Below the pieces are notes generated by a model. The model did not search any database and was not told the origin of the DNA. It saw nothing but the letters and a program-made list of their open reading frames with translations. This document shows positions 50,141-64,000 of a DNA stretch of 64,000 nucleotides, piece after piece. The stretch comes from Burkholderiales bacterium. Its GTDB lineage: Bacteria; Pseudomonadota; Gammaproteobacteria; Burkholderiales; SG8-39. The position numbers were made by a program, and so were the translations under genes. Every line of letters begins with the position of its first letter. Position 1 is the first letter of the stretch. The stretch covers positions 1-64,000 of the forward strand of contig JAOAEA010000004.1 in assembly GCA_026417035.1 (NCBI GenBank), written 5' to 3'.

Positions 50141-50755
50141 TCAGGCCGCGTGCGCGGCGCGCGCCTTCAGCCGCGAGAGCGTCTCGGGCGTGAGGTTGAG
50201 GTACGAGGCGAGCTCCTTGTTCGGGAGCCGGCCCGCCATGTCGGCATGCTTGCGCATGAACCGCGCGAGCCGCCCCGGGGCGTCGAGGAGGTGCAGCGTG
50301 ATCGTGTGCGCCATCACCTCGCTCATCAGCTTCATCACCTCGTATTCGAAGCGCGCCTTCACGTCCGGGTGGCGCTCGAGGAAATCGACCCAGGTCGGCA
50401 TGCCGAGCTTCGCCGCGCGCACCTTGGTCACCGCGACGATCGAGTAGGGCACCGGCGTCTTCAGGCGCCAGGCCGCGTAGGACGTGTCCATGTCGGTCTC
50501 GGCCGCGAAGCGCAGGATCATTTCCTTGCCCTCGGGGTTGGCGACGACGCGCTTCAGCACGCCGTCGAGGATGAAGAACTGCTCCATCTCGTGCGAGCCC
50601 TGGTGCACGAGGAGCTCGCCCTTGCGGTAGTCGGCGATCTCGAGCAGCGGCTCGAGCTCCTCCCAGGCCGCCTGCGGCATCGGCCCGAGGATCCGGTTCT
50701 TCCTGAGCTCGAGGCGGATCGTGTTGCGCTGCGGATGGGAGGCGATGGAGGACAT
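50141..50755 (-). CDS. Crp/Fnr family transcriptional regulator (cysteine-free, ExxSR recognition helix)
   Basis: cNMP-binding-like fold GELLVHQGSHEMEQFFILDGVLKRVV; C-terminal HTH GRLPNKELASYLNLTPETLSRLKARA; divergent from oxc. Confidence 0.92.
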   Translation of the reverse strand: MSSIASHPQRNTIRLELRKNRILGPMPQAAWEELEPLLEIADYRKGELLVHQGSHEMEQFFILDGVLKRVVANPEGKEMILRFAAETDMDTSYAAWRLKTPVPYSIVAVTKVRAAKLGMPTWVDFLERHPDVKARFEYEVMKLMSEVMAHTITLHLLDAPGRLARFMRKHADMAGRLPNKELASYLNLTPETLSRLKARAAHAA

Positions 50756-50820
50756 GCTGGGGAGGGAGGAGGGGCCCTCGGAATGACCGCGCCGCAATCG
50801 CGGGAAGTTAACTGCAATGA

Positions 50821-50834
50821 TTGACCGCAGTCAA
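50821..50834. promoter_or_regulatory. Crp/Fnr-type palindrome TTGAC-CGCA-GTCAA (site 5, oxc / Crp-Fnr gene divergent region)
   Basis: Perfect inverted repeat; tatcat -10 at 50858-50863, 23 nt downstream. Confidence 0.78.
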
Positions 50835-50918
50835 GGTTGGCCCCGCAGCCGACTCACTATCATCCGGGGCGTCCCGGATTCGCCTCCGGCGCCACACCCT
50901 TTCCAGAGGGAGATCCGC

Positions 50919-52673
50919 ATGGGCAACGTCGAACCGCAAGTCGCCCCGCCGGCCGCCGCGCCGCCGCAGCTCACCGACGGCTTCCACCTCGTCATCGACG
51001 CCCTGAAGCTGAACGGCATCGACACGATCTTCGGCCTGCCGGGCATCCCGATCACCGACCTCGCGCGCATGGCGCAGGGGGCGGGGCTACGCGTCATCTC
51101 GTTCCGCCACGAGCAGAACGCGGGCTACGCGGCGTCGATTGCGGGCTTCATCACGGGAAAGCCCGGCATCTGCCTCACGGTGTCGGCGCCGGGCTTCCTG
51201 AACGGCCTCACCGCGCTCGCGAACGCCACGACCAACTGCTTCCCGATGATCCTGATGAGCGGGTCGAGCGAGCGCGAGATCGTGGACCTGCAGCAGGGCG
51301 ACTACGAGGAGATGGACCAGCTCGCCATCGCGAGGCCGCTCGCGAAGGCCGCCTTCCGGGTGCTGCACGCGGAGGACATCGGCGTCGGCGTCGCGCGCGC
51401 GATCCGCGCCGCCGTGTCCGGGCGCCCCGGCGGCGTGTACCTCGACCTGCCGGCGAAGCTCTTCGCGCAGACGATGGACGCCGAGGCGGGCAGGCGCTCG
51501 CTCATCGCGGTCGTCGATCCGGCGCCGCGCCAGATCCCCGCGCCGGAGGCGGTCGGGCGCGCCCTCGCGCTCCTCAGGAGCGCGCAGCGGCCGCTGATCG
51601 TGCTCGGCAAGGGCGCCGCGTACGCCCGGGCCGACGCCGACATCCGGGCGCTCGTCGAGCGCACCGGGATCCCGTACCTGCCCATGTCCATGGCGAAAGG
51701 GCTGCTGCCCGACACGCACGAGCAGTCGGCGGCGGCGGCACGCTCGTACGTGCTGCCCGAAGCCGACGTGGTGATGCTCGTCGGCGCCCGCCTCAATTGG
51801 CTCCTCTCGCACGGCAAGGGCAAGACCTGGGGCGCCAGGGACGCGAAGGGCTGGGGCGGGCAGAAGTTCATCCAGATCGACATCTCCCCGCAGGAAGCCG
51901 ACAGCAACGTGCGCATCGACGCGCCGGTCGTGGGCGACATCGGCTCCTGCGTCGCGGCGCTGCTCGCCGGGATCGGGGCGGACTGGCCGAAGCCGCCCGC
52001 CGGGTGGCTCGCCGCGATCGCCGAGCGCAAGGCCAAGAACATCGCGAAGATGGCCGAGACGCTGGCGAAGAACCCCTCGCCGATGAGCTTCCACAGCGCG
52101 CTCGCCGTCGTGCGCGACATCGTCCGGGAGAACCCCCGCGCGTACCTCGTGAACGAGGGCGCCAATGCGCTCGACTTCACGCGCGCGATCGTCGACATGT
52201 ACCAGCCGCGCAAGCGCCTCGATGTCGGCACCTGGGGCGTGATGGGCATCGGGATGGGTTTTTCCGTCGCCGCCGCGGTGGTGAGCGGCGAGCAGGTGAT
52301 CGCCGTCGAGGGCGACAGCGCCTTCGGTTTCTCGGGCATGGAGGTGGAGACGATCTGCCGCTACAACCTGCCGGTGTGCGTCGTGGTCCTCAACAACAAC
52401 GGCGTCTACCGCGGCACCGACGTCAACCCCGCCGGCGGGCCCGACGTCGCGCCCACCGTGTTCGTGAAGGACGCGCGCTACGAGAAGCTGATGGAGGCGT
52501 TCGGGGGTGTCGGCGCGTACGCCACCACCCGCGCCGAGCTGCGCGCGGCGATGGAAACGGCGATCCGCACCCGCCGGCCGACGCTCGTCAACGCGATCAT
52601 CGACGAGACGGCCGGCACGGAGAGCGGGCGCATCACGAGCCTCAACCCGAGCGCGAAGCAGAAGCAGGCCTGA
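50919..52673 (+). CDS. oxc: oxalyl-CoA decarboxylase
   Basis: ThDP enzyme; [103 protein letters not shown]. Confidence 0.97.
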
Positions 52674-52733
52674 GCCGCGGACCGGAGAGGTAGAATCCGC
52701 GCCCTGTCCGCGGCCGATTTCCGGGAGACCAGC

Positions 52734-54005
52734 ATGGAAGCACTCAAGGGCATTCGCATCCTCGACATGACGCACGTGCAGGCGGGCCCCACCTGCTCGC
52801 AGCTCCTCGCGTGGATGGGCGCCGACGTGATCAAGTTCGAGAACCCGCAGGGCGACGCGACCCGCGGCCAGCTGCGCGACGTGCCGCACGCCGACAGCCT
52901 CTACTTCACGATGCTCAACTGCAACAAGCGGTCGATCACCGTGAACATGAAGACGCCCGAGGGCAAGCAGGTGTTCGTCGACCTGGTGAAGCGCTGCGAC
53001 ATCATCATGGAGAACTTCGGCCCGGGCGTGCTCGACCGCCTCGGGTTCACGTGGGAGAAGATCCACGAGATCAATCCGAAGATCGTGATGGGCTCGATCA
53101 AGGGCTTCGGCTCGACCGGCCCGTACGCCGAGTTCAAGGCCTACGAGAACGTCGCGCAGGCGATGGGCGGGGCCATGAGCACGACCGGCGTGCCCGATGG
53201 CCCGCCGTTCGTCACCGGCGCGCAGATCGGCGACTCGGGAACCGGCCTGCACCTGGCGATCGGGTTGCTCGCGGCGCTGCGGCAGGCCGAGCGCACCGGC
53301 CAGGGCCAGTACGTCGAGGTGGCGATGATGGACGGGGTGATGAACCTCTGCCGCGTGAAGTTCCGCGACCACCAACGCCTCACCCGCGGGCCGTTGCCCG
53401 AGTACTCGGTGCCCACCTACCAGGGCATGGGCGAGGTGCCGCGCGCGGGCAACGATTCCGGCGGCGGGCAGCTCGGCAACGCCATCCACTGCAAGCCGCA
53501 CGGCGCGAACGACTGGCTCTACGTGGTCGTGCAGGAGGCGGTGTGGGAAGCGCTCGCGCGGCGCATCGGCCCCGACGTGCACATGCCGGACATGGCGACC
53601 GACCCGCGGCTCGCCACGATCGGCGAGCGGCGCAAGAACCAGAGCCTCATGTGGACGCTCATCAACAAGTTCGCCGAGAACTACACCAAGCGCGAGCTCA
53701 TGGCCATCCTCAACGAGCTCGACGTGCCGTGCGGCCCGATCATGAGCACCGAGGACCTCGCCAACGACGAGCACGTGCGCGGCCGCGGGATGTGGGTCGA
53801 GCTCGACCACCCGCAGCGCGGCAAGTGGTGGAACGTCGGCATGCCGATCAAGCTGTCGGCCTCGCCCGCGGTGATCAAGCGCTCGCCGCTGCTCGGCGAG
53901 CACACCGACGAGGTGCTGCGCGACGTGCTCGGCTACGACGACGGCCGGATCGCCGCGCTGAAGGCCGCGGGCGCCTTCAGCGCGCCGCCGAAGAAGGCGG
54001 CGTGA
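52734..54005 (+). CDS. frc: formyl-CoA transferase (CoA-transferase family III)
   Basis: [74 protein letters not shown]; follows oxc. Confidence 0.97.
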
Positions 54006-54128
54006 GCCCGGCGATCGGCCCTCGGCCATCGGCATCGGGCGATCGGCAGTCCGTCTGGAGCGCCGGGGCGCGCGATCCTCGATGACCCGTCCCCGACCCT
54101 CCCTTCCCAACGCGCGGTGACCCACGCC

Positions 54129-55061
54129 ATGAGAATCGCCATCATCGGACAGCAGGACTTCGGCAAGGCCGTGTTGGAAGCGTTCCTCGCCCGCGGCGAC
54201 GAGGTCGCGGCGGTCTTCTGCGCACCGGAGAAGGAGGGCGCCAAGGCCGACCCCCTCAAGGCCGCGGCGCTCGCCAAGGGCCTCACGGTCCACCAGTTCC
54301 AGTCGTTGCGCAGCCCGGAGGCCGCCGCCGCGATGCAGGCGCTCGGCGCGGACCTCGGGGTCATGGCCTACGTCCTGCAGTTCGCGCCGCAGGACTTCGT
54401 GACGATCCCGAAGCACGGCACGATCCAGTACCATCCGTCGCTGCTGCCGAAGTTCCGCGGCCCGAGCTCGATCAACTGGCCGATCGCCAAGGGCGAGACG
54501 AAGACCGGCCTCACCATCTTCCGGCCCACCGACGGGCTCGACGAGGGTCCGGTGATCCTGCAGAAGGAAACGCCGATCGGCCCAGACGACACGCTCGGCA
54601 CGGTCTACTTCGACCGCCTCTTCCCGATGGGCGTCGCCGCGATGCTGGAGGCCGCCGACCTCGTGGTGGCGGGCAAGCACACCGAGACCGTGCAGGACGA
54701 GCGCCAGGCGTCCTACGAGGGCTGGTTCCGCGCCGCCGAGGCGCGGATCAACTGGGCGAACCACGTCGACTTCGTCCACAACCTCATCCGGGCCGCGAAC
54801 CCCGCGCCCGGCGCGTGGACGACCTTCGGCGGGAAGAAGGTCCAGATCTTCGACTGCCGCAAGCACGTCTTTCGCACCTTCGGCGCGGTGAAGGGGAAGA
54901 TCGGCGAGGTGACCGACGTGGGCGCCGAGAGCTTCTTCGTCACGGCCCAGGGCGGCCGCATCGAGGTGCTGAAGGCGAAGGCCGAGGACGGGAAGAAGCT
55001 TCCCGCGGCCGAATTCGCCGCGAGCGTCGGCCTCGCCGCTGGCGCCATCCTCGGCGCCTGA
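54129..55061 (+). CDS. formyltransferase-fold protein resembling the 10-formyl-THF hydrolase domain of ALDH1L1
   Basis: MRIAIIGQQDFGKAVLEAFLARGDEVAAVFCAPEKEGAKADPL; HGTIQYHPSLLPKFRGPSSINWPIAKGETKTGLTIFRPTDGLDEGPVILQKE; YEGWFRAAEARINW; follows frc. Confidence 0.85.
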   Translation: MRIAIIGQQDFGKAVLEAFLARGDEVAAVFCAPEKEGAKADPLKAAALAKGLTVHQFQSLRSPEAAAAMQALGADLGVMAYVLQFAPQDFVTIPKHGTIQYHPSLLPKFRGPSSINWPIAKGETKTGLTIFRPTDGLDEGPVILQKETPIGPDDTLGTVYFDRLFPMGVAAMLEAADLVVAGKHTETVQDERQASYEGWFRAAEARINWANHVDFVHNLIRAANPAPGAWTTFGGKKVQIFDCRKHVFRTFGAVKGKIGEVTDVGAESFFVTAQGGRIEVLKAKAEDGKKLPAAEFAASVGLAAGAILGA

Positions 55062-55310: not shown

Positions 55311-55339
55311 TTGACTAGTTTCATACCCGACTGTAAGAA
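55311..55339 (+). promoter_or_regulatory. sigma70-like promoter for kinase/cyclase operon
   Basis: ttgact - 17 nt - taagaa inside a locally AT-rich intergenic stretch upstream of the CHASE2-kinase gene. Confidence 0.65.
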
Positions 55340-55388
55340 TCCCGGTTAGCCTGCTGTTTCTTCAAATACTTACGCGGGTTTTTTCGGG

Positions 55389-58082
55389 TTGCGACGGAGC
55401 ACCCGCCGGGTGCGCCCGGACCCGCCGAAGGACGGCGGCGCGCGCCGGCGCGGCGAGCGTGGGTCGCGGCTCGCCGGCGCGCGTGCCGCGCGGCGCGGAG
55501 AAGAACGAGAACGAGAACACGAGGGAGATGCGGGGTTGAACAGGACGGCCATCTGGAAGCGCGACTGGGTCCTCGGGCTCGCGGTCGCGGTCGTCCTCTT
55601 CTTCGCCGGGGGCACGGACCTCGTCCAGAGCCTCGAGCGCAAGGCCTACGACCTCGGCGTGCGCGCGACCGACCGCGCGCCGAGCGAGCGCGTGGTGGTG
55701 CTCGCGATCGACGACGCGAGCATCCAGAACATCGGGCGCTGGCCGTGGCCGCGCGACGTGCACGCGAAAGCGACCGACTTGCTCGCCTCGGGAAAGCCCA
55801 AGGTGATCGGCAACCTGGTGTTCTTCTCCGAGCCGCAGAAGGACCCCGGCCTCGTCTACGTCACCAGGCTCGCCGAGGAGTACGCGAAAGCGGTGCCCGA
55901 CGCGACGGCCCTGGAGAGCGGCGCGCCGCTCGAGCGCATCGGCGCGCTCCTCAAGGAGGCGCAGGACGCGCTCGACACCGACCGCAAGCTCGCCGAGAGC
56001 TACACCCGGGCCGGTAACGTCCTGCTGCCGATGTTCTTCGAGTTCGGCGAGCCGCGCGGCAAGCCCGACCGCCCGCTGCCGGCGTTCGTCACCCGGAACG
56101 AGCTCGCTAACGTCGAGGGCCCGCCCGATGCGGTCCCGCTCACGACCACGGCCAACGTGAACTTCCCGACCGATGCGATCGGCGCCACCGCCGCCGGCCT
56201 CGGGCACCTCTCCTCGCGCGTCGAGGTGGACGGCGGCGTGCGCACCGAGCCGCTGGTGCTGGCGCACTTCGACCAGCTCTATCCCTCGCTCTCGCTCGTG
56301 CTCGCGGCGAAGAGCCTCAACCTCGGCCCCGGCGACGTGAAGGTGCGGCTCGGCGAGGGGGTGAGCCTCGGCAACCTGCGCATCACCACCGATCCGCGGC
56401 TCGCCATGAACACCTACTTCTACAAGGACCGCGACGGCCGGCCGGCCTTCCAGGTGGACTCCTTCTTCGATCTGTACTCGGGGAAGATCCCGCCGGCGAA
56501 GTACGCCGACAAGGTCGTGCTCATCGGGCCGACCGCGACCGGGCTCGGCACCGCGTTCGTGACCCCGGTCTCGCCCGCGATGCCGCCGGTGCTCACCCTC
56601 GCGCACAACGTGTCGTCGATCCTGCAGGAGCACTTCTTCGTGGTGCCGCCGTGGGGGCGCTGGGCCGAGCTCGCGGTCTATGCCGCGGTGGCGCTCTACC
56701 TCATCCTCGCCCTGCCGCGGCTCAAGGCCGGCCCGGCGGCGATCGTGACGCTCGCGATCCTGGTCATCCTCGTCGGGACGCACTTCGCGCTGATGACGAC
56801 GCGCGGCGTCTGGCTGCAGCTGATGCTCCCGGTGGTGCTGCTCGTCATCGGCCACCTGCTGCTCACCACCAAGCGGTTCCTGGTGACCGAGGCGGGCAAG
56901 GTGAAGTCGGACCAGGAGTCCGCGGTCTCGAACCGCATGCTCGGCCTCGCCTTCCAGGGGCAGGGGCAGCTCGACATGGCCTTCGATTACTTCCGCAAGT
57001 GCCCGGTCGACGACACCCTGCTCGACAACATCTACAACCTCGCCCTCGACTTCGAGCGCAAGCGCCAGTTCAACAAGGCCGAGGCCGCGTTCCGCTACAT
57101 CGCCCAGCACAACCCCAGGTTCCGCGACCTGGGCGAGCGGCTCGCGCGTGCGAAGCAGCTCTCCGAGACCGTGATCCTCGGCGGCGCCGCGCAGAGCCAC
57201 CCCGGCGGCACGATGGTCCTCGGCGGCGCTGCCGAGAAGCCGATGCTCGGCCGCTACCAGGTGGAGAAGGAGCTCGGCAAGGGCGCGATGGGCGCCGTGT
57301 ACCTCGGACGCGATCCGAAGATCGGCCGCGTCGTGGCGATCAAGACGATGGCGCTCTCGCAGGAGTTCGAGGCCGACGAGCTCGCCGACGTGAAGGCGCG
57401 GTTCTTCCGCGAGGCCGAGACCGCGGGGCGCCTGAACCACCCCAATATCGTCACCATCTTCGACGCGGGCGAGGAGCACGACCTCGCCTACATCGCGATG
57501 GAGTTCCTGAAGGGCCGGGACCTCGCCGGCTACACCAAGCCGGGCAGCCTGCTGCCCTTCGACAAGGTGGTCTCGATCGTGGCGCGGGTGGCCGACGCGC
57601 TCGGTTACGCGCACCGGCAGAATGTCGTGCACCGCGACATCAAGCCGGCCAACATCATGTACGAGCCCGAGTCCGACGCGGTCAAGGTCACCGACTTCGG
57701 CATCGCGCGCATCACCGACTCGTCGAAGACGAAGACCGGCATGGTGCTCGGCACCCCCTCCTACATGTCGCCCGAGCAGCTCGCCGGCCGGAAAGTGGAC
57801 GGCCGCTCCGACCTCTTCTCGCTCGCGGTCATGCTCTACCAGCTCGTCGCCGGGAAGCTCCCGTTCGAAGGCGACTCGATGGCGCAGCTCATGTTCAAGA
57901 TCGCGAACGACCCGGCGCCCGACATCCGCACCGTCAACCCGCAGGCGCCGGCGGCGCTCGCCGCGTTCCTCGCGCGCGCGCTCGCCAAGGAGCCCGCGGA
58001 ACGCTTCCAGACCGGCGAGGAGTTCGCGCAGGCGCTGCGCGCCGCGGCCGGCCTCGCGCCGGCGGCCCAGGGGGCGCGATGA
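55389..58082 (+). CDS. CHASE2-TPR-Ser/Thr protein kinase
   Basis: N-terminal CHASE2 (RVVVLAIDDASIQNIGRWPWPRDVHAKATDLLASGKPKVIG), three TM, TPR-like linker, Hanks kinase GKGAMGAVYLG, VAIK, HRDIKPANIMY, DFGIA, GTPSYMSPEQ. TTG at 55536 (LNRTAIWKRDWVLG) is a likely true start. Confidence 0.92.
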   Translation: MRRSTRRVRPDPPKDGGARRRGERGSRLAGARAARRGEEREREHEGDAGLNRTAIWKRDWVLGLAVAVVLFFAGGTDLVQSLERKAYDLGVRATDRAPSERVVVLAIDDASIQNIGRWPWPRDVHAKATDLLASGKPKVIGNLVFFSEPQKDPGLVYVTRLAEEYAKAVPDATALESGAPLERIGALLKEAQDALDTDRKLAESYTRAGNVLLPMFFEFGEPRGKPDRPLPAFVTRNELANVEGPPDAVPLTTTANVNFPTDAIGATAAGLGHLSSRVEVDGGVRTEPLVLAHFDQLYPSLSLVLAAKSLNLGPGDVKVRLGEGVSLGNLRITTDPRLAMNTYFYKDRDGRPAFQVDSFFDLYSGKIPPAKYADKVVLIGPTATGLGTAFVTPVSPAMPPVLTLAHNVSSILQEHFFVVPPWGRWAELAVYAAVALYLILALPRLKAGPAAIVTLAILVILVGTHFALMTTRGVWLQLMLPVVLLVIGHLLLTTKRFLVTEAGKVKSDQESAVSNRMLGLAFQGQGQLDMAFDYFRKCPVDDTLLDNIYNLALDFERKRQFNKAEAAFRYIAQHNPRFRDLGERLARAKQLSETVILGGAAQSHPGGTMVLGGAAEKPMLGRYQVEKELGKGAMGAVYLGRDPKIGRVVAIKTMALSQEFEADELADVKARFFREAETAGRLNHPNIVTIFDAGEEHDLAYIAMEFLKGRDLAGYTKPGSLLPFDKVVSIVARVADALGYAHRQNVVHRDIKPANIMYEPESDAVKVTDFGIARITDSSKTKTGMVLGTPSYMSPEQLAGRKVDGRSDLFSLAVMLYQLVAGKLPFEGDSMAQLMFKIANDPAPDIRTVNPQAPAALAAFLARALAKEPAERFQTGEEFAQALRAAAGLAPAAQGAR

Positions 58083-58906
58083 ACCTCTCCCAGGCACTCG
58101 AGATCGCCACCTGCACCGACCCGGGCATGGTGCGCTCGCACAACGAGGACTCGGTCGCCGCCGACGCCTCGATCGGCGTCGCGGTGCTCGCCGACGGCAT
58201 GGGCGGCTACAACGCCGGCGAGGTCGCGAGCGGCATGGCCACCACCGTGCTGACGACCGAGCTGCAGCACCTGCTCGCGAGCGGCGAGGCGGCGGCGATG
58301 GCGGGCGCGGCCGGCCGCGAGCGCGCCGAGGCGATGCTGCGCGCCGAGATCGCGAAGGCCAACACGTCGATCTACCAGGCGGCGCAGAGCCAGCCGCAGT
58401 ACGCGGGCATGGGCACGACGCTGGTGGTCGCGCTCTTCTACGACAACCGCGTGACGGTGGCGCACATCGGCGACTCGCGCGTCTACCGCCTGCGCGACGA
58501 CGAGCTCGTCCAGATCACCAAGGACCATTCGCTGCTGCAGGAGCAGATCGACAGCGGCATGATCACGGCCGAGCAGGCGCGCTTCTCGCAGAACAAGAAC
58601 CTGGTCACCCGGGCGCTCGGCATCGACCCGACGGTGGACGCCGAGATCCGCGAGTACGAGACGCAACCCGGCGACCTGTGGCTGCTCTGCTCCGACGGCC
58701 TGAACGACATGGTGAGCGACGAGGACATCGCGATGACGCTGCAGGCGCTCGCCTCGAACCTGCCGCTCGCGGCGCAGCAGCTGGTGCAGATGGCGAACGA
58801 CAACGGGGGGCGCGACAACGTCTCGGTCGTCCTCGTTCGGGTGGTGCGGGACTACGCGGCGCCGAAGGGCCTGCTCGCGCGGTTATTCGGTTGGTTGAGG
58901 CATTGA
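58079..58906 (+). CDS. PP2C-family Ser/Thr protein phosphatase
   Basis: ATGA overlap with kinase; CTDPGMVRSHNEDSVAA, VLADGMGGYNAGEVAS, GMGTTLVVALF, VAHIGDSRVYRLR, LLCSDGLNDMVSD, DNGGRDNVSVVLV. Confidence 0.96.
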   Translation: MNLSQALEIATCTDPGMVRSHNEDSVAADASIGVAVLADGMGGYNAGEVASGMATTVLTTELQHLLASGEAAAMAGAAGRERAEAMLRAEIAKANTSIYQAAQSQPQYAGMGTTLVVALFYDNRVTVAHIGDSRVYRLRDDELVQITKDHSLLQEQIDSGMITAEQARFSQNKNLVTRALGIDPTVDAEIREYETQPGDLWLLCSDGLNDMVSDEDIAMTLQALASNLPLAAQQLVQMANDNGGRDNVSVVLVRVVRDYAAPKGLLARLFGWLRH

Positions 58907-58918
58907 CGGGGAACTGCT

Positions 58919-59764
58919 ATGGCGAAATTCATTCTCAGCATGGACGGGCTGGTGCTCAAGGAGATCCCGGTCTCCAAGGAGCGGATGACCATCGGCCGCA
59001 AGCCTCACAACGACATCCAGATCGACAACCTGGCGGTGTCGGGCGAGCACGCGGTGGTCGTGACGATCCTGAACGACTCGTTCCTCGAGGACCTCGGCTC
59101 GACGAACGGCACGCTCGTGAACGGCCAGCCGATCAAGAAGCACTTCCTGCAGCACAACGACGTCGTCGAGCTCGGCAAGTACAAGCTCAAGTACGTGAAC
59201 GAGCAGGCGCAGCAGCACCGCGCGGCGCCGCAGGACTTCGAGAAGACCATGGTGCTCCGGCCCGGCCAGGTGCCCAAGGTCGAGCCCGGGAAGCCGGCCT
59301 CCGAGTCGCAGCAGATGCGCGCGCCCGGCGTTTCACAGCCGGTCGGCGTGTCGCAGCCCAACCCGGCGCTCAGCGAGTCGCAGGCGATGCGCGCCGGGCA
59401 GGGCGCGCCGGCGGCCTCGCAGCCGATGGGCGTCTCGCAGCAGGTGAGCACCTCGCAGCCGATGGGGGCTTCGCAGCCGGTCGCCGGCGGGAAGCAGGTG
59501 CCGCCCGCGGCGATCCAGATCCTCACCGGGGCGAACGCCGGGCGCGAGCTCGAGCTCGTGAAGCCGCTCACCACGCTCGGCAAACCCGGCGTGCAGGTCG
59601 CGGTCATCACGCGCCGGCCGCAGGGCTACTTCATCACCCACGTCGAAGGCGCGACGTTCCCGGTCGTGAACGGGAAGGCGCTCGACGCCCAGGCGCACGC
59701 GCTCGCCGACCACGACGTGATCGAGCTCGCCGGGGTGAAGATGGAGTTCTTCTTCAAGACCTGA
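58919..59764 (+). CDS. FHA domain protein (N-terminal FHA, SQP-rich linker, C-terminal FHA-like domain)
   Basis: MTIGRKPHNDIQIDNLAVSGEHAVV..LGSTNGTLVNGQPI; linker SQPVGVSQP..SQPMGVSQQVSTSQPMGASQP. Confidence 0.93.
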   Translation: MAKFILSMDGLVLKEIPVSKERMTIGRKPHNDIQIDNLAVSGEHAVVVTILNDSFLEDLGSTNGTLVNGQPIKKHFLQHNDVVELGKYKLKYVNEQAQQHRAAPQDFEKTMVLRPGQVPKVEPGKPASESQQMRAPGVSQPVGVSQPNPALSESQAMRAGQGAPAASQPMGVSQQVSTSQPMGASQPVAGGKQVPPAAIQILTGANAGRELELVKPLTTLGKPGVQVAVITRRPQGYFITHVEGATFPVVNGKALDAQAHALADHDVIELAGVKMEFFFKT

Positions 59765-59798
59765 GCGTTCCCGTCCCCCGCCCCGGTCCGGCCAAGCC

Positions 59799-62021
59799 GT
59801 GAAGCAGCATCTCGCCCGGATCGCGCTCGGGCTCGCCGTCGTCGCCCTGTTCGCCGGCCATGCGGTGAAGCTCTACCGCATCGGCTTCGTCTCGCAGCTC
59901 GACAACATCATCTACGACTACCGGCTGCGGCTCACCGCGCCGGGCGGCGTCGACCCGCGCATCGTCATCCTCGACATCGACGAGAAGAGCCTCGCCGACC
60001 CCGCGCTCGGCCGCTGGCCGTGGGGGCGCGACAAGATGGCGGCGATCGTCGAGCGGCTCTTCGACCACTACGGCATCGCGGTGCTCGGGGTCGACGTCGT
60101 GAACCCCGAGCCGGACACCTCGAGCGGACTCGGTGTGCTCGAGTCGCTCGCCGCCGGCGAGCTCAAAGAGCTGCCCGAATTCCGCGACGCGCTCGCGCGC
60201 CTGCGGCCGAGCCTCGACCACGACGGGCGGCTCGCCGGCGCGGTGAAGGGCCGCCCGGTGGTGCTCGGCTACTACTTCAACTTCGACGAGGGCGCGCGCG
60301 AGGCGGGCAAGCTGCCGCCCCCGGTGCTGCCCGCCGGGACGTTCACCGGGCGAAACATCGCCTTCCTGCGCGCGCGTGGCTTCGGCGCGAACCTGCCCGC
60401 GATCCAGGACGCCGCGCCGAGCGCCGGCCACTTCAACCCGGCCCCGGACTTCGACGGCGTGACCCGCCGCGTCCCGATGCTGGTCGAGTACAAGGGCGCG
60501 ACCTACGAGGCGCTGTCGCTCGCGCTGGTGCGGCTGCTCATCGGGTCCCCGGGGATCGCGCCGGGCTACGCGCAGGAGCGGTTCCTCGCCGGCAACTACT
60601 CCGGCCTCGAGTGGCTCGAAGTGGGCCCCCTGCGCATCCCGGTGGACGAGAACGTCGCCGCGCTGGTCCCCTACCGCGGACCGCGCGGCAGCTTCGCGTA
60701 CTTCTCGCTCGCCGACATCTACCACGCCCGCGTCCCGGCCGAGGCGCTGAAGGGCAAGATCGCGCTCCTCGGCACCACGACGCCGTCGCTCTTCGACCTG
60801 CGCGCGGCGCCGGTCGGGGAGGTGTACCCGGGCGTCGAGATCCACGCCAACCTGGTGGCGGGGATCCTCGACGGCGCGATCAAGCACAAGCCGGCCTACA
60901 TGTGGGGGGGCGAGGTCCTGCTCCTGGTGGTCCTCGGCGTCGGGCTGGCGGTGCTCGTGCCGATGCTCTCGCCGCTGCGGGCCACCGTCGTCTCGGCGGC
61001 GACCGTGGCATCGGTCACGGCGCTCTCCATCGCGCTCTGGAGCGGGGCGGGCATCGTGCTGCCCCTGGCAAGCGTCTTGCTAATGACGCTCGGGATCTTC
61101 GCCCTCAACATGTCCTACGGCTATTTCGTCGAGTCCCGCTCGAAGCGCCAGATCACCGAGCGCTTCGGCGAATACGTGCCCCCGGAACTCGCCGACCAGA
61201 TGGCGCGCGACCCGGCGAAGTACACCATGGAGGGCCGCAGCGAGACGCTCACCGTGCTCTTCTCCGACATCCGCGGCTTCACGACCATCTCCGAGGGCAT
61301 GGAGCCGACCGAGCTGCGGCGCATGCTGAACGAGTACCTCACCGAGATGAGCCTCGTCATCCGCGGCAACCGCGGCACGCTCGACAAGTACATCGGCGAC
61401 GCGATCATGGCGTTCTGGGGCGCGCCGGTCGCCGATCCCGGCCACGCGACCCGAGCGGTCGAGACGGGGATGGCGATGCAGGCGCGGCTCGCCGAGCTCG
61501 CGCCGGCGTTCCGCGCCAAGGGCTGGCCGGAGCTCGCCATCGGCGTGGGCGTCAACACCGGGCCGATGTACGTCGGCGACATGGGCTCGCGCATCCGGCG
61601 CGCCTACACCGTGATCGGCGACGCGGTGAACACGGCCTCGCGCCTGGAGGGCCTGACGAAGCGATACGGCGTCGGCGTGCTCGTCGGCGAGGAGACGCGC
61701 CGGCACGCTTCCGGGATCGTGTTCCGGGAGCTCGACCGGGTGCGGGTGAAGGGCAAGGACGAGCCGGTCGCGATCTTCGAGCCGCTCGGCCGCGAGGGCG
61801 CGGTGCCCTCGGCGAGGCTCGAGGAGGCGAAGCTCTGGGCGCAGGCGCTCAAGCTCTACCGCGCGCAGTCCTGGGAGCAGGCCGAGCTCGCGCTCTTCAA
61901 CCTCGACCGGCTCTACCCGGGCACGCGCCTCTACCCCCTGTACGCCGAGCGGGTGAGACACTATCGGGCCGCGCCGCCCGGGCCGGGCTGGGACGGCGCC
62001 ACGACGTTCGAGGAAAAATGA
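59799..62021 (+). CDS. CHASE2 domain adenylate cyclase (class III)
   Basis: CHASE2: PRIVILDIDEKSLADPALGRWPWGRDKMAAIVERLFDHYGIAVLGVDVV; cyclase: LTVLFSDIRGFTTISE, GTLDKYIGDAIMAFWGAP, YTVIGDAVNTASRLEGL. Confidence 0.95.
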   Translation: MKQHLARIALGLAVVALFAGHAVKLYRIGFVSQLDNIIYDYRLRLTAPGGVDPRIVILDIDEKSLADPALGRWPWGRDKMAAIVERLFDHYGIAVLGVDVVNPEPDTSSGLGVLESLAAGELKELPEFRDALARLRPSLDHDGRLAGAVKGRPVVLGYYFNFDEGAREAGKLPPPVLPAGTFTGRNIAFLRARGFGANLPAIQDAAPSAGHFNPAPDFDGVTRRVPMLVEYKGATYEALSLALVRLLIGSPGIAPGYAQERFLAGNYSGLEWLEVGPLRIPVDENVAALVPYRGPRGSFAYFSLADIYHARVPAEALKGKIALLGTTTPSLFDLRAAPVGEVYPGVEIHANLVAGILDGAIKHKPAYMWGGEVLLLVVLGVGLAVLVPMLSPLRATVVSAATVASVTALSIALWSGAGIVLPLASVLLMTLGIFALNMSYGYFVESRSKRQITERFGEYVPPELADQMARDPAKYTMEGRSETLTVLFSDIRGFTTISEGMEPTELRRMLNEYLTEMSLVIRGNRGTLDKYIGDAIMAFWGAPVADPGHATRAVETGMAMQARLAELAPAFRAKGWPELAIGVGVNTGPMYVGDMGSRIRRAYTVIGDAVNTASRLEGLTKRYGVGVLVGEETRRHASGIVFRELDRVRVKGKDEPVAIFEPLGREGAVPSARLEEAKLWAQALKLYRAQSWEQAELALFNLDRLYPGTRLYPLYAERVRHYRAAPPGPGWDGATTFEEK

Positions 62022-62785
62022 AGCTCAGGGTGCTCGGCTGCAGCGGCGGCATCGGCGGGCGGCATCTGCGCACGACGTCGTTCCTGCTCGACAAGGACGT
62101 CCTCGTCGACGCCGGCACGGGCGTGGGCGACCTGACGCTCGCCGAGATCACGCAGATCGACCACGTGTTCGTCACGCACTCGCACCTCGACCACGTCTGC
62201 TCGATCCCCTTCCTCGTCGACACCGTCGGGCAGATGCGCGACAAGCCGATCACGGTGTACGGCATCGGCGCCACGCTCGAGATCCTGCAGAACCACGTCT
62301 TCAACTGGTCGATCTGGCCGGACTTCACCCAGATCCCGAGCCCGGAGGCGCCGTTCCTGCGCTACCAGCCGGTGCAGATCGGCGAGACCGTGGAGATCGA
62401 CGGCCGCCGCGTCACGGCGCTGCCCGCGAACCACGTGGTGCCGGCGGTGGGCTACCACCTCGACAGCGGCGAGGCGAGCCTCGTGTTCAGCGGCGACACG
62501 ACCACAAACGACGCGCTGTGGAAGATCGTCAACAAGATCGCCAACCTGAAGTACCTCGTCATCGAGACCGCGTTTTCCAACCAGGAGCGGCAGCTCGCCG
62601 TCGTGTCGAAGCACCTCTGCCCGAGCATGCTCGCCGAGGAGCTCGCCAAGCTCGAGCGCAGCGCCGAGATCTACATCTCGCACCTGAAGCCGGGCGAGAT
62701 CGAGCTGATCATGGAGGAAATCGAGGAGTGCTGCGGCCACTACCGACCGCGCATCCTGCAGAACAACCTGGTCCTCGAGTTCTAG
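62018..62785 (+). CDS. MBL-fold phosphodiesterase (3',5'-cyclic-nucleotide phosphodiesterase-like)
   Basis: ATGA overlap with cyclase; FVTHSHLDHVCSIPFLVDTV (HxHxDH), LVFSGDTTTNDALW, ISHLKPGE. Confidence 0.88.
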   Translation: MKLRVLGCSGGIGGRHLRTTSFLLDKDVLVDAGTGVGDLTLAEITQIDHVFVTHSHLDHVCSIPFLVDTVGQMRDKPITVYGIGATLEILQNHVFNWSIWPDFTQIPSPEAPFLRYQPVQIGETVEIDGRRVTALPANHVVPAVGYHLDSGEASLVFSGDTTTNDALWKIVNKIANLKYLVIETAFSNQERQLAVVSKHLCPSMLAEELAKLERSAEIYISHLKPGEIELIMEEIEECCGHYRPRILQNNLVLEF

Positions 62786-62816
62786 GGCCGGGCGCGCATC
62801 CCGACCAAGGCAAGCC

Positions 62817-63893
62817 ATGACCGAAGACAAAGTCTCCGCCAAGGTGCTCAAGGGCCTCGAGCCGCTCGGCTCGCTCTCCGAGTCCCGCCTCGGGGAGCTC
62901 GCCGCGCTCGTGTTCGTCGAGCACGTCTCCAAGAACCTCGACCCGTTCCGCATGCAGGGCGTCGCCGGGCAGTCGGTGTACCTGCTGCGCGGCGAGCTGG
63001 CGCTCACGCTCAAGGACGGCAGCTCGACCGTGGTGGTCGGAGGCACCGGCGAGGCGCGCTACCCGCTCGGGCGCAAGGCGCCGTTCGCGGCCGCCAAGGC
63101 GATCACCGACATCGACCTCGTGCGCATCGACGACGATCTGCTGGACATCATGGCCACCTGGGACCAGCTCGGCGGCGGCGACCGGCGCGCCTCCGAGCAA
63201 GCGGCGCCCACGCTCGGCAACTGGGCCATCCTGACCGGCATGTTCAGCGTGAACAACCTGCGCACCGGCGCCTTCTCGCAGCTGCCGCCGGCGCACATCG
63301 AGGCGCTGCTCAAGCGTTTCACCCGGGTGCCGGCGAAGCGCGGCCAGGCGATCATCCGCGAGGGCGAGGTCGGCGATTTCTACTACGTGGTGGAGACCGG
63401 CAAGTGCGAGGTCGAGCGCACCGTCGGCGGGGCGCGCATCAAGCTCGCCCAGCTCAAGGCGGGGGACGCTTTCGGGGAGGAGGCGCTCGTCTCGGGCGCG
63501 AAGCGCAACGCCACCGTGACCATGATCACCGACGGCACGCTCTTCCGGCTCGACCAGAAGGACTTCAACGAGCTCCTGCGCGAGCCGCTCCTCCAGCGTG
63601 TCACCCTGGAGGAGGCGAAGGCCAAGGTGGCGGCCGGGGCGCAGTGGCTCGACGTCAGGTATCCGTCGGAATTCCAGTTCGACAAGCTGCCCGGGGCGAT
63701 CAACATCCCCGTGGCGGAGATCCGGGACGCGGCGCGGCTCCTCGACCGGGACCGCGAGTACGTCGTCTACTGCCAGAGCGGCCGCCGCAGCTCCGCCGCG
63801 GCGTTCCTGCTCGCCCAGCGCGGCTACAAGGCCTTCCTCCTGGAAGGGGGGCTCTGGGGCGGCGAGAAGCGGGCCCCGGCGGCGGCGCGATGA
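62817..63893 (+). CDS. cyclic-nucleotide-binding domain(s) plus rhodanese domain protein
   Basis: cNMP phosphate-binding cassette FGEEALVSGAKRNATVTM; rhodanese WLDVRYPSEFQFDKLPGAINIPVAEIRD..YVVYCQSGRRSSAAAFLLAQRGYKAFLLEGGL. Confidence 0.93.
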   Translation: MTEDKVSAKVLKGLEPLGSLSESRLGELAALVFVEHVSKNLDPFRMQGVAGQSVYLLRGELALTLKDGSSTVVVGGTGEARYPLGRKAPFAAAKAITDIDLVRIDDDLLDIMATWDQLGGGDRRASEQAAPTLGNWAILTGMFSVNNLRTGAFSQLPPAHIEALLKRFTRVPAKRGQAIIREGEVGDFYYVVETGKCEVERTVGGARIKLAQLKAGDAFGEEALVSGAKRNATVTMITDGTLFRLDQKDFNELLREPLLQRVTLEEAKAKVAAGAQWLDVRYPSEFQFDKLPGAINIPVAEIRDAARLLDRDREYVVYCQSGRRSSAAAFLLAQRGYKAFLLEGGLWGGEKRAPAAAR

Positions 63894-63940: not shown

Positions 63941-63969
63941 TTGAACTGCATTGGCAGGGGGGCTAGCAT
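63941..63969 (+). promoter_or_regulatory. possible sigma70-like promoter at right edge
   Basis: ttgaac - 17 nt - tagcat; downstream gene lies outside the window. Confidence 0.3.
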
Positions 63970-64000
63970 CCCGGGATCATTCCGACAACAGCATGCCCCG

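What the first reader, a model, noticed from the sequence alone, without database searches (positions are those of the whole stretch)
55311..63893. Self-contained dual signalling operon: CHASE2-kinase, PP2C, FHA, CHASE2-adenylate cyclase, MBL phosphodiesterase, cNMP-binding rhodanese
Six co-oriented genes, two joined by ATGA overlaps (kinase/PP2C and cyclase/PDE). Domain content gives a writer (Hanks kinase), eraser (PP2C) and reader (FHA) for phospho-Ser/Thr, plus a writer (class III cyclase), eraser (HxHxDH MBL protein) and reader (cNMP-binding domain) for a cyclic nucleotide. Both sensor proteins carry extracellular CHASE2 domains, so one periplasmic cue could feed both branches. The output appears to be a rhodanese with intact CQSGRRS active-site loop, suggesting nucleotide-gated sulfur transfer. 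I do not know of this six-gene module being characterised as one system.
Basis: partly seen in the sequence, partly recalled or inferred. Interest (0 to 1): 0.88.

Follow-up and report, generated by a model that had tools for sequence, protein, structure and literature searches.

The report
Conserved kinase–cAMP–pilus-motor signalling operon
A run of eight neighbouring bacterial genes, kept in the same order in many relatives, appears to combine protein phosphorylation, cyclic AMP and cyclic-di-GMP signalling, and probably controls a pilus-type motor ATPase rather than, as first guessed, mainly a sulfur-transfer enzyme.

Summary
The six genes are real, with the domains and two ATGA overlaps described. 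But the window cuts the locus. On the same contig it continues with a GAF-MshEN-PilB/GspE-type ATPase and a GAF-HD-GYP phosphodiesterase. In 27 related loci with enough flanking DNA the order never changes: nine carry all eight genes, ten lack only the cNMP-binding rhodanese. In 56 same-order genomes that carry the ATPase gene, the MBL gene lies just upstream in 51, HD-GYP downstream in 44, FHA upstream in 42, the cyclase upstream in 33, and the full-length rhodanese in only 9. So the rhodanese is an accessory, not the main output. All catalytic residues are invariant. The cyclase has the K/T signature of class IIIb adenylyl cyclases, and the MBL protein fits the atypical class-II cAMP phosphodiesterases (Rv1339/YhfI). 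The ATPase GAF domain matches only cAMP/cGMP-type GAFs, best cyanobacterial CyaB2. Two threonine motifs, SETVILGG in the kinase and DFEKTMVLR in the FHA protein, are conserved islands in hypervariable linkers, probably FHA-docking phosphosites. Best explanation: a CHASE2-driven phospho-switch plus a cAMP writer/eraser gating a pilus-type ATPase and c-di-GMP breakdown. Conservation is shown; ligands and output are inferred. I found no published description.

The parts
55311..55340 (+). putative sigma-70-type promoter (TTGACT-18-AAGAAT, extended TG)
   Evidence: L005 5312-5341; 3 found in the region against 0.6 expected in shuffles, so a weak call
55536..58082 (+). KIN: CHASE2 receptor Ser/Thr kinase, 848 aa; TM-CHASE2-TM-TPR-like-linker-kinase
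   Evidence: K603, E626, D701, D720, T732, T734 invariant in 30 of 30
57162..57185 (+). conserved SETVILGG in the kinase juxtamembrane linker (T545, candidate autophosphosite and FHA-docking site pTxxL)
   Evidence: T545 in 29/30, L548 in 30/30, next to a hypervariable stretch (residues 551-563)
58079..58906 (+). PP2C: Stp1/IreP-type Ser/Thr phosphatase, 275 aa; ATGA overlap with KIN
   Evidence: NF033484 255 bits against cut-off 230; metal-binding Asp invariant in 39/39
58919..59764 (+). FHA: N-terminal canonical FHA, hypervariable linker, conserved degenerate FHA-like C-terminal domain
   Evidence: G26, R27, S41, H44, N63 invariant in 41/41
59234..59260 (+). DFEKTMVLR island in the FHA linker (T110, candidate phosphosite)
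   Evidence: positions 106-111 and 114 at least 0.90 conserved, flanks mostly below 0.35; T in 39/41
59799..62021 (+). CYC: CHASE2 class III (IIIb-signature) adenylyl cyclase, 740 aa
   Evidence: D490, K530, D534, T604, N611, R615 invariant in 44/44
62018..62785 (+). MBL: metallo-beta-lactamase-fold phosphodiesterase, 255 aa, THSHLDH; ATGA overlap with CYC
   Evidence: (T53 H54 H56 D58 H59 H139 D160 H222 invariant in 26)
62817..63893 (+). CRPRHO: degenerate cNBD - intact cNBD - rhodanese (CQSGRRS), 358 aa; lineage-restricted accessory
   Evidence: (E221, R230, C319 invariant in 23/23)
63951..63980 (+). promoter-like site (TTGGCA-18-GATCAT) in the ~246-nt gap before the ATPase gene; that gene (C193:64140-66509) and the GAF-HD-GYP gene (C193 ~66509-68221) lie just beyond the window end

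Best explanation
The six genes are the first three quarters of a conserved eight-gene signalling locus of Betaproteobacteria. Proposed mechanism: a periplasmic cue sensed by CHASE2 activates the membrane kinase. It autophosphorylates, probably also at T545 in the conserved SETVILGG linker motif, and phosphorylates T110 in the DFEKTMVLR motif of the FHA protein. The FHA domain reads such pTxxL sites, docking to the kinase or folding back on itself, and the PP2C resets them. In parallel the CHASE2 cyclase makes cAMP and the MBL protein hydrolyses it. cAMP is read mainly by the PDE/CyaB2-type GAF domains of the two downstream proteins: it switches the PilB/GspE-like ATPase, an alternative motor for the type IV pilus or type II secretion machine encoded elsewhere, and the HD-GYP phosphodiesterase, which lowers c-di-GMP. 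In some lineages, including this one, a tandem-cNBD rhodanese is an extra cAMP-responsive branch. Shown by computation: gene content, synteny, intact active sites, conserved Thr motifs, GAF subfamily. Inferred: cAMP as product and ligand, phosphosites, direction of control, pilus or secretion output.
For: Synteny: of the loci found with the cyclase, 44 (window included) have it beside PP2C/FHA. In the 27 with enough flank, order is always KIN-PP2C-FHA-CYC-MBL-(CRPRHO)-PILB-HDGYP; 9 have all eight and 10 lack only CRPRHO. In an even sample of 120 genomes of the order, 56 carry the GAF-MshEN-ATPase; MBL is upstream in 51, FHA in 42, CYC in 33, HD-GYP downstream in 44. Active sites invariant. Cyclase K530/T604 is the adenine-selecting pair of class IIIb cyclases (established knowledge); nearest solved structures are adenylate cyclases. 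MBL: [T/S]HXHXDH of atypical class-II PDEs (PMC9293780), top fold hit YhfI, yeast PDE1 TMq 0.82. GAF of the ATPase: best PDB hit CyaB2 1ykd at 1.4e-29, and every hit up to E 1.3e-5 comes from cNMP PDEs/cyclases except one GAF-HD-GYP; GAF of HD-GYP: PDE5, CyaB2. HD-GYP orthologues also sit beside this cyclase, without the rest of the operon, in 8 other loci. Thr motifs are islands in hypervariable linkers.
Against: No ligand, product or phosphosite is measured. In 12 of 56 genomes with the ATPase there is no cyclase orthologue, though MBL-ATPase often stays, so the eraser and ATPase are not strictly tied to this cyclase. MBL is missing in L018, L026 and L074, and the kinase in L011 and L049. 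The ATPase has no PilC neighbour and falls below the PilB and GspE equivalog cut-offs. Its MshEN domain lacks the c-di-GMP motif in 36 of 36, so c-di-GMP probably does not gate it directly. The HD-GYP GAF has mostly lost the Lys of the NKFDE motif. The MBL protein scores below the NCBI cyclic-nucleotide-PDE cut-off (42 against 400).
Confidence: 0.5

Rival explanations
1. Two independent but co-regulated modules: a KIN-PP2C-FHA phospho-switch and a CYC-MBL-(CRPRHO)-ATPase-HD-GYP cyclic-nucleotide module, placed together by selection for co-expression but acting on different targets.
For: KIN-PP2C-FHA occurs without the ATPase across Gammaproteobacteria and is divergent from the cyclase in L043 and L046. 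HD-GYP-CYC pairs occur alone in L065, L071, L072, L077, L080, L086. Within the order, the phospho-module or the cyclase can be absent while MBL-ATPase remains (G163, G210, G254).
Against: The strict common order and orientation across many families, and overlaps or short gaps between most genes, favour one transcript and coordinated stoichiometry.
Confidence: 0.3
2. One reading: the cNMP-binding rhodanese is the output, i.e. nucleotide-gated sulfur transfer controlled by the two branches.
For: cNBD phosphate-binding cassette (E221, R230) and rhodanese Cys319 are invariant in 23/23; whenever full-length it lies between MBL and the ATPase gene.
Against: Full-length in only 9 of 56 genomes that carry the ATPase gene; 10 of 27 well-flanked loci lack only it; the same-family genome G250 has an in-frame stop in it.
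Confidence: 0.08
3. The MBL protein is an RNase Z-like or other hydrolase unrelated to cAMP, and the GAF domains bind another ligand, so there is no cAMP circuit beyond the cyclase.
For: TIGR02651 RNase Z is the top NCBIfam hit by bits (71, cut-off 293); RNase Z structures are among the top folds; MBL persists in genomes without this cyclase.
Against: Far below the RNase Z cut-off; [T/S]HXHXDH and the YhfI fold match the atypical class-II PDEs, themselves considered RNase Z-derived (PMC9293780); the gene directly follows the cyclase, overlapping it in the window.
Confidence: 0.12

Closest known systems
PpkA-PppA-Fha threonine-phosphorylation pathway (type VI secretion) and mycobacterial PknB/PstP/FHA clusters
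   Same: Transmembrane Hanks kinase, PP2C and FHA reader encoded together; FHA protein as kinase target
   Different: Sensor is CHASE2, not PASTA or vWA; FHA protein scores below the T6SS-FHA cut-off (49.6 against 120); partnered here with a cyclase, PDE, pilus-type ATPase and HD-GYP
GarA/OdhI FHA switch proteins
   Same: Single canonical FHA plus a conserved Thr motif outside the domain, as in phospho-dependent self-binding; best PDB hits
   Different: Motif lies C-terminal of the FHA in a long linker, and a second degenerate FHA-like domain follows; below the OdhI cut-off (50.7 against 200)
CHASE2 class III adenylyl cyclases and CHASE2 Ser/Thr kinases (cyanobacterial cbSTKII, PMC2176072)
   Same: Receptor architectures known separately
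   Different: Here both occur in one operon with matched erasers and readers
Atypical class-II cAMP phosphodiesterases (Rv1339, YhfI, C. glutamicum CpdA; PMC9293780)
   Same: [T/S]HXHXDH, PF12706, YhfI-like fold
   Different: Operon partner of a membrane cyclase; scores below NCBI's equivalog; activity untested
MshE/PilB/PilF traffic ATPases gated by c-di-GMP (PMC11731258)
   Same: MshEN-T2SSE architecture, Walker A, tetracysteine zinc site
   Different: Carries a PDE/CyaB2-type GAF and has lost the (R/K/L)LG c-di-GMP motif: plausibly cAMP-gated instead; orphan with no PilC neighbour

Membership tests
Class III (IIIb) adenylyl cyclase | two metal Asp, adenine-selecting Lys with Thr, transition-state Asn/Arg | tested here: met
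   D490, D534, K530, T604, N611, R615 in 44/44
Class III (IIIb) adenylyl cyclase | makes cAMP from ATP | not testable with these tools
   needs an assay
Hanks-type Ser/Thr kinase | Gly loop, VAIK Lys, HRD, DFG, activation-loop Thr | tested here: met
   30/30; Pkinase 184 bits
PknB (PASTA) kinase | NF033483 curated cut-off | tested here: not met
   304 against 450 bits; CHASE2 in place of PASTA
Stp1/IreP PP2C phosphatase | NF033484 cut-off and metal Asp residues | tested here: met
   255 against 230 bits; Asp 39/39
phosphothreonine-binding FHA | GR, SxxH, N residues | tested here: met
   41/41
GarA/OdhI switch protein | NCBIfam OdhI cut-off | tested here: not met
   50.7 against 200 bits
Atypical class-II cAMP phosphodiesterase | [T/S]HXHXDH and YhfI-like fold | tested here: met
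   THSHLDH in the window protein; T53, H54, H56, D58, H59 invariant in 26; top fold hit 6kns
Atypical class-II cAMP phosphodiesterase | NF041851 equivalog cut-off | tested here: not met
   42 against 400 bits
Atypical class-II cAMP phosphodiesterase | cAMP hydrolysis | not testable with these tools
   needs an assay
RNase Z | TIGR02651 cut-off | tested here: not met
   71 against 293 bits
cNMP-binding GAF (CyaB2/PDE type) | subfamily-specific similarity | tested here: met
   1ykd 1.4e-29, then PDE5/2/10/6; other GAF or regulator proteins only above E 0.05
cNMP-binding GAF (CyaB2/PDE type) | NKFDE motif | tested here: inconclusive
   ATPase GAF: N 35/35, K 30/35, F 35/35, E173 34/35; HD-GYP GAF lost K in most
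PilB/GspE traffic ATPase | Walker A/B and tetracysteine | tested here: met
   35/35; T2SSE 395 bits
PilB/GspE traffic ATPase | PilB or GspE equivalog cut-off | tested here: not met
   481 against 676 and 444 against 630 bits
MshEN c-di-GMP receptor | (R/K/L)LG 24-residue motifs | tested here: not met
   0 of 36; a paralogue in the same genome (L090) keeps the core
HD-GYP phosphodiesterase | HD...K, HHExxDGxGYP | tested here: met
   33/33 for these positions except the GYP Pro, 31/33
Pycsar/CBASS-type defence | dedicated cyclase with toxic cNMP-gated effector | tested here: inconclusive
   only domain-level PycC and PycTIR hits in PADLOC; partners match signalling, not TIR or TM effectors

The most novel reading that the evidence does not exclude
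A dedicated three-currency module (pThr, cAMP, c-di-GMP) in which cAMP directly gates a pilus/secretion-type motor ATPase through a PDE-type GAF domain that has functionally replaced c-di-GMP sensing by MshEN. This would be a direct allosteric cAMP receptor in a traffic ATPase.
Probability: 0.35. Interest if true: 0.8.

Novelty: new variant of a known kind. Interest (0 to 1): 0.62.

Why it matters
Crosstalk among Ser/Thr phosphorylation, cAMP and c-di-GMP in bacteria is usually pieced together from scattered genes. Here writers, erasers and readers are packaged in one conserved locus with a plausible mechanical output, and two conserved threonine motifs and a GAF domain give precise mutable targets. 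If the GAF binds cAMP, it gives a direct route from cAMP to a motor ATPase, where known cAMP control of pili (established knowledge, e.g. Vfr in Pseudomonas) runs through transcription.

Tried and rejected
Rhodanese as main output: rejected on distribution. c-di-GMP gating of the ATPase by MshEN: motif absent in 36/36. Guanylyl-cyclase reading: the Lys/Thr pair is invariant instead. Defence system: PADLOC gives only generic kinase and cyclase domain hits. A single cue for both CHASE2 domains: 28% identity is not informative. Literature searches for CHASE2 with PP2C/FHA, HD-GYP/PilB, or GAF/PilB/cAMP found no description of this locus; the Ramlibacter paper only notes three PilB paralogues. No genome-wide test of T6SS adjacency was made.
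Full report
Observation. The kinase most likely starts at the TTG at 55536 behind GAGGGAG. The stated start, 55311, falls on a promoter-like site.

The window cuts the locus. The contig runs on for another 49 kb. Directly downstream on the same strand lie an ATPase gene (C193:64140-66509; GAF 39 bits, MshEN 30.5, T2SSE 395) and a GAF-HD-GYP gene (C193 about 66509-68221). After that an ORF on the opposite strand begins. The gap before the ATPase gene is about 246 nt and holds a weak promoter-like match, so a second promoter is possible.

Conservation. A scan of species genomes with the cyclase gave 80 loci, mostly Betaproteobacteria. In 44 loci (the window's own contig included) the cyclase sits beside the PP2C or FHA gene. 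In the 27 with enough DNA on both sides the order is always KIN-PP2C-FHA-CYC-MBL-(CRPRHO)-PILB-HDGYP: nine have all eight genes, ten lack only CRPRHO, three lack MBL and CRPRHO, and two lack KIN. L022 was counted as lacking HD-GYP, but one search shows it. Independently, in 120 genomes drawn evenly from the order, 56 have the GAF-MshEN ATPase. Of those, 51 have MBL upstream on the same strand, 42 FHA, 33 the cyclase, and 44 HD-GYP downstream. CRPRHO is full-length in 9. MBL-ATPase is the most persistent pair: it remains in G163, G210 and G254, which lack FHA, cyclase and HD-GYP hits. Outside the order, KIN-PP2C-FHA is widespread without the ATPase, and HD-GYP next to the cyclase recurs alone in 8 loci. 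The locus therefore looks assembled from separable sub-modules, with HD-GYP-cyclase linkage arising more than once or being old.

Biochemistry from sequence. Every catalytic position checked in the kinase, phosphatase, cyclase, cNBD, rhodanese, ATPase and HD-GYP is invariant or nearly so, so none looks like a pseudoenzyme. The cyclase keeps Lys530 and Thr604, the pair of class IIIb adenylyl cyclases (established knowledge), so cAMP is the expected product. The MBL protein carries THSHLDH, and its metal ligands are invariant across 26 homologues; its model (pLDDT 93.6) is closest to YhfI, with yeast PDE1 giving the highest query TM-score of the listed hits (0.82). A published analysis defines atypical class-II PDEs (Rv1339, YhfI, CpdA) by [T/S]HXHXDH (PMC9293780). 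RNase Z is disfavoured by score but not excluded biochemically.

Phospho-switch. The FHA protein has an N-terminal canonical FHA, a hypervariable Ala/Pro-rich linker and a conserved degenerate FHA-like C-terminal domain (the fold assignment of the last is by eye). Within the linker one block, DFEKTMVLR, is over 0.9 conserved at most positions while the surroundings are mostly below 0.35. The kinase has a similar block, SETVILGG, in its juxtamembrane linker, with T545 in 29/30 and L548 in 30/30. Both read T-x-x-L, fitting FHA pT+3 recognition (established knowledge). The motifs are also present in gammaproteobacterial KIN-FHA pairs lacking the ATPase (L043, L046, L073, L084). That these are phosphosites is inference.

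Cyclic-nucleotide readers. The ATPase GAF matches CyaB2 (1ykd, a cyanobacterial adenylate cyclase whose GAFs bind cAMP; ligand from established knowledge) at 1.4e-29 and then almost only cyclic-nucleotide PDEs. Its NKFDE-like residues are largely kept. The HD-GYP GAF matches PDE5 and CyaB2 but has mostly lost the motif Lys. The ATPase MshEN domain has no (R/K/L)LG c-di-GMP motif in 36 orthologues (consensus from PMC11731258). CRPRHO models as two tandem cNBD-like folds, the first degenerate, plus rhodanese; pLDDT is 79.9 with a low-confidence linker, and the Foldseek hits to PKG/PKA tandem cNBDs have low TM, probably because domain orientation is not reproduced.

Host context. The genome (3.8 Mb, 249 contigs, about 90% complete) encodes PilB-PilC (C11), GspE-GspF (C204) and two further PilB-like ATPases without T2SSF neighbours (C203, C207); the ATPase described here likewise has no T2SSF gene nearby. 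It may be an alternative motor for one of those machines; which one is unknown.

Verdict. Literature coverage is limited to open-licence PMC papers, so novelty is provisional.

Noticed in passing
50141-55061: Upstream of the operon: Crp-type regulator (minus strand), oxalyl-CoA decarboxylase-like, formyl-CoA transferase-like and formyltransferase-like genes, i.e. an oxalate-degradation-like cluster (by eye). The formyltransferase-like gene (54117-55061) also precedes the operon in about a dozen relatives at 70-77% identity.
   Followed up: partly
G000 C182:102859-103782 (L001/L006) and C175:22278-23234 (L004/L007): Two further CHASE2 proteins in the genome; the C182 one is a second CHASE2-cyclase about 33% identical to the operon's.
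   Followed up: no
G000 C207 (L089) and C203 (L090): Two more PilB/GspE-like ATPases without a T2SSF/PilC hit nearby; L090 keeps an RLG c-di-GMP motif core.
   Followed up: partly
L009, L011, L049: Kinase gene absent although PP2C and FHA remain right behind the formyltransferase-like gene: loss of the kinase but retention of phosphatase and reader.
   Followed up: no
G250 C57:3438-4502: CRPRHO orthologue in the same family has one in-frame TAG, suggesting ongoing loss of the rhodanese gene, or a sequencing error.
   Followed up: no
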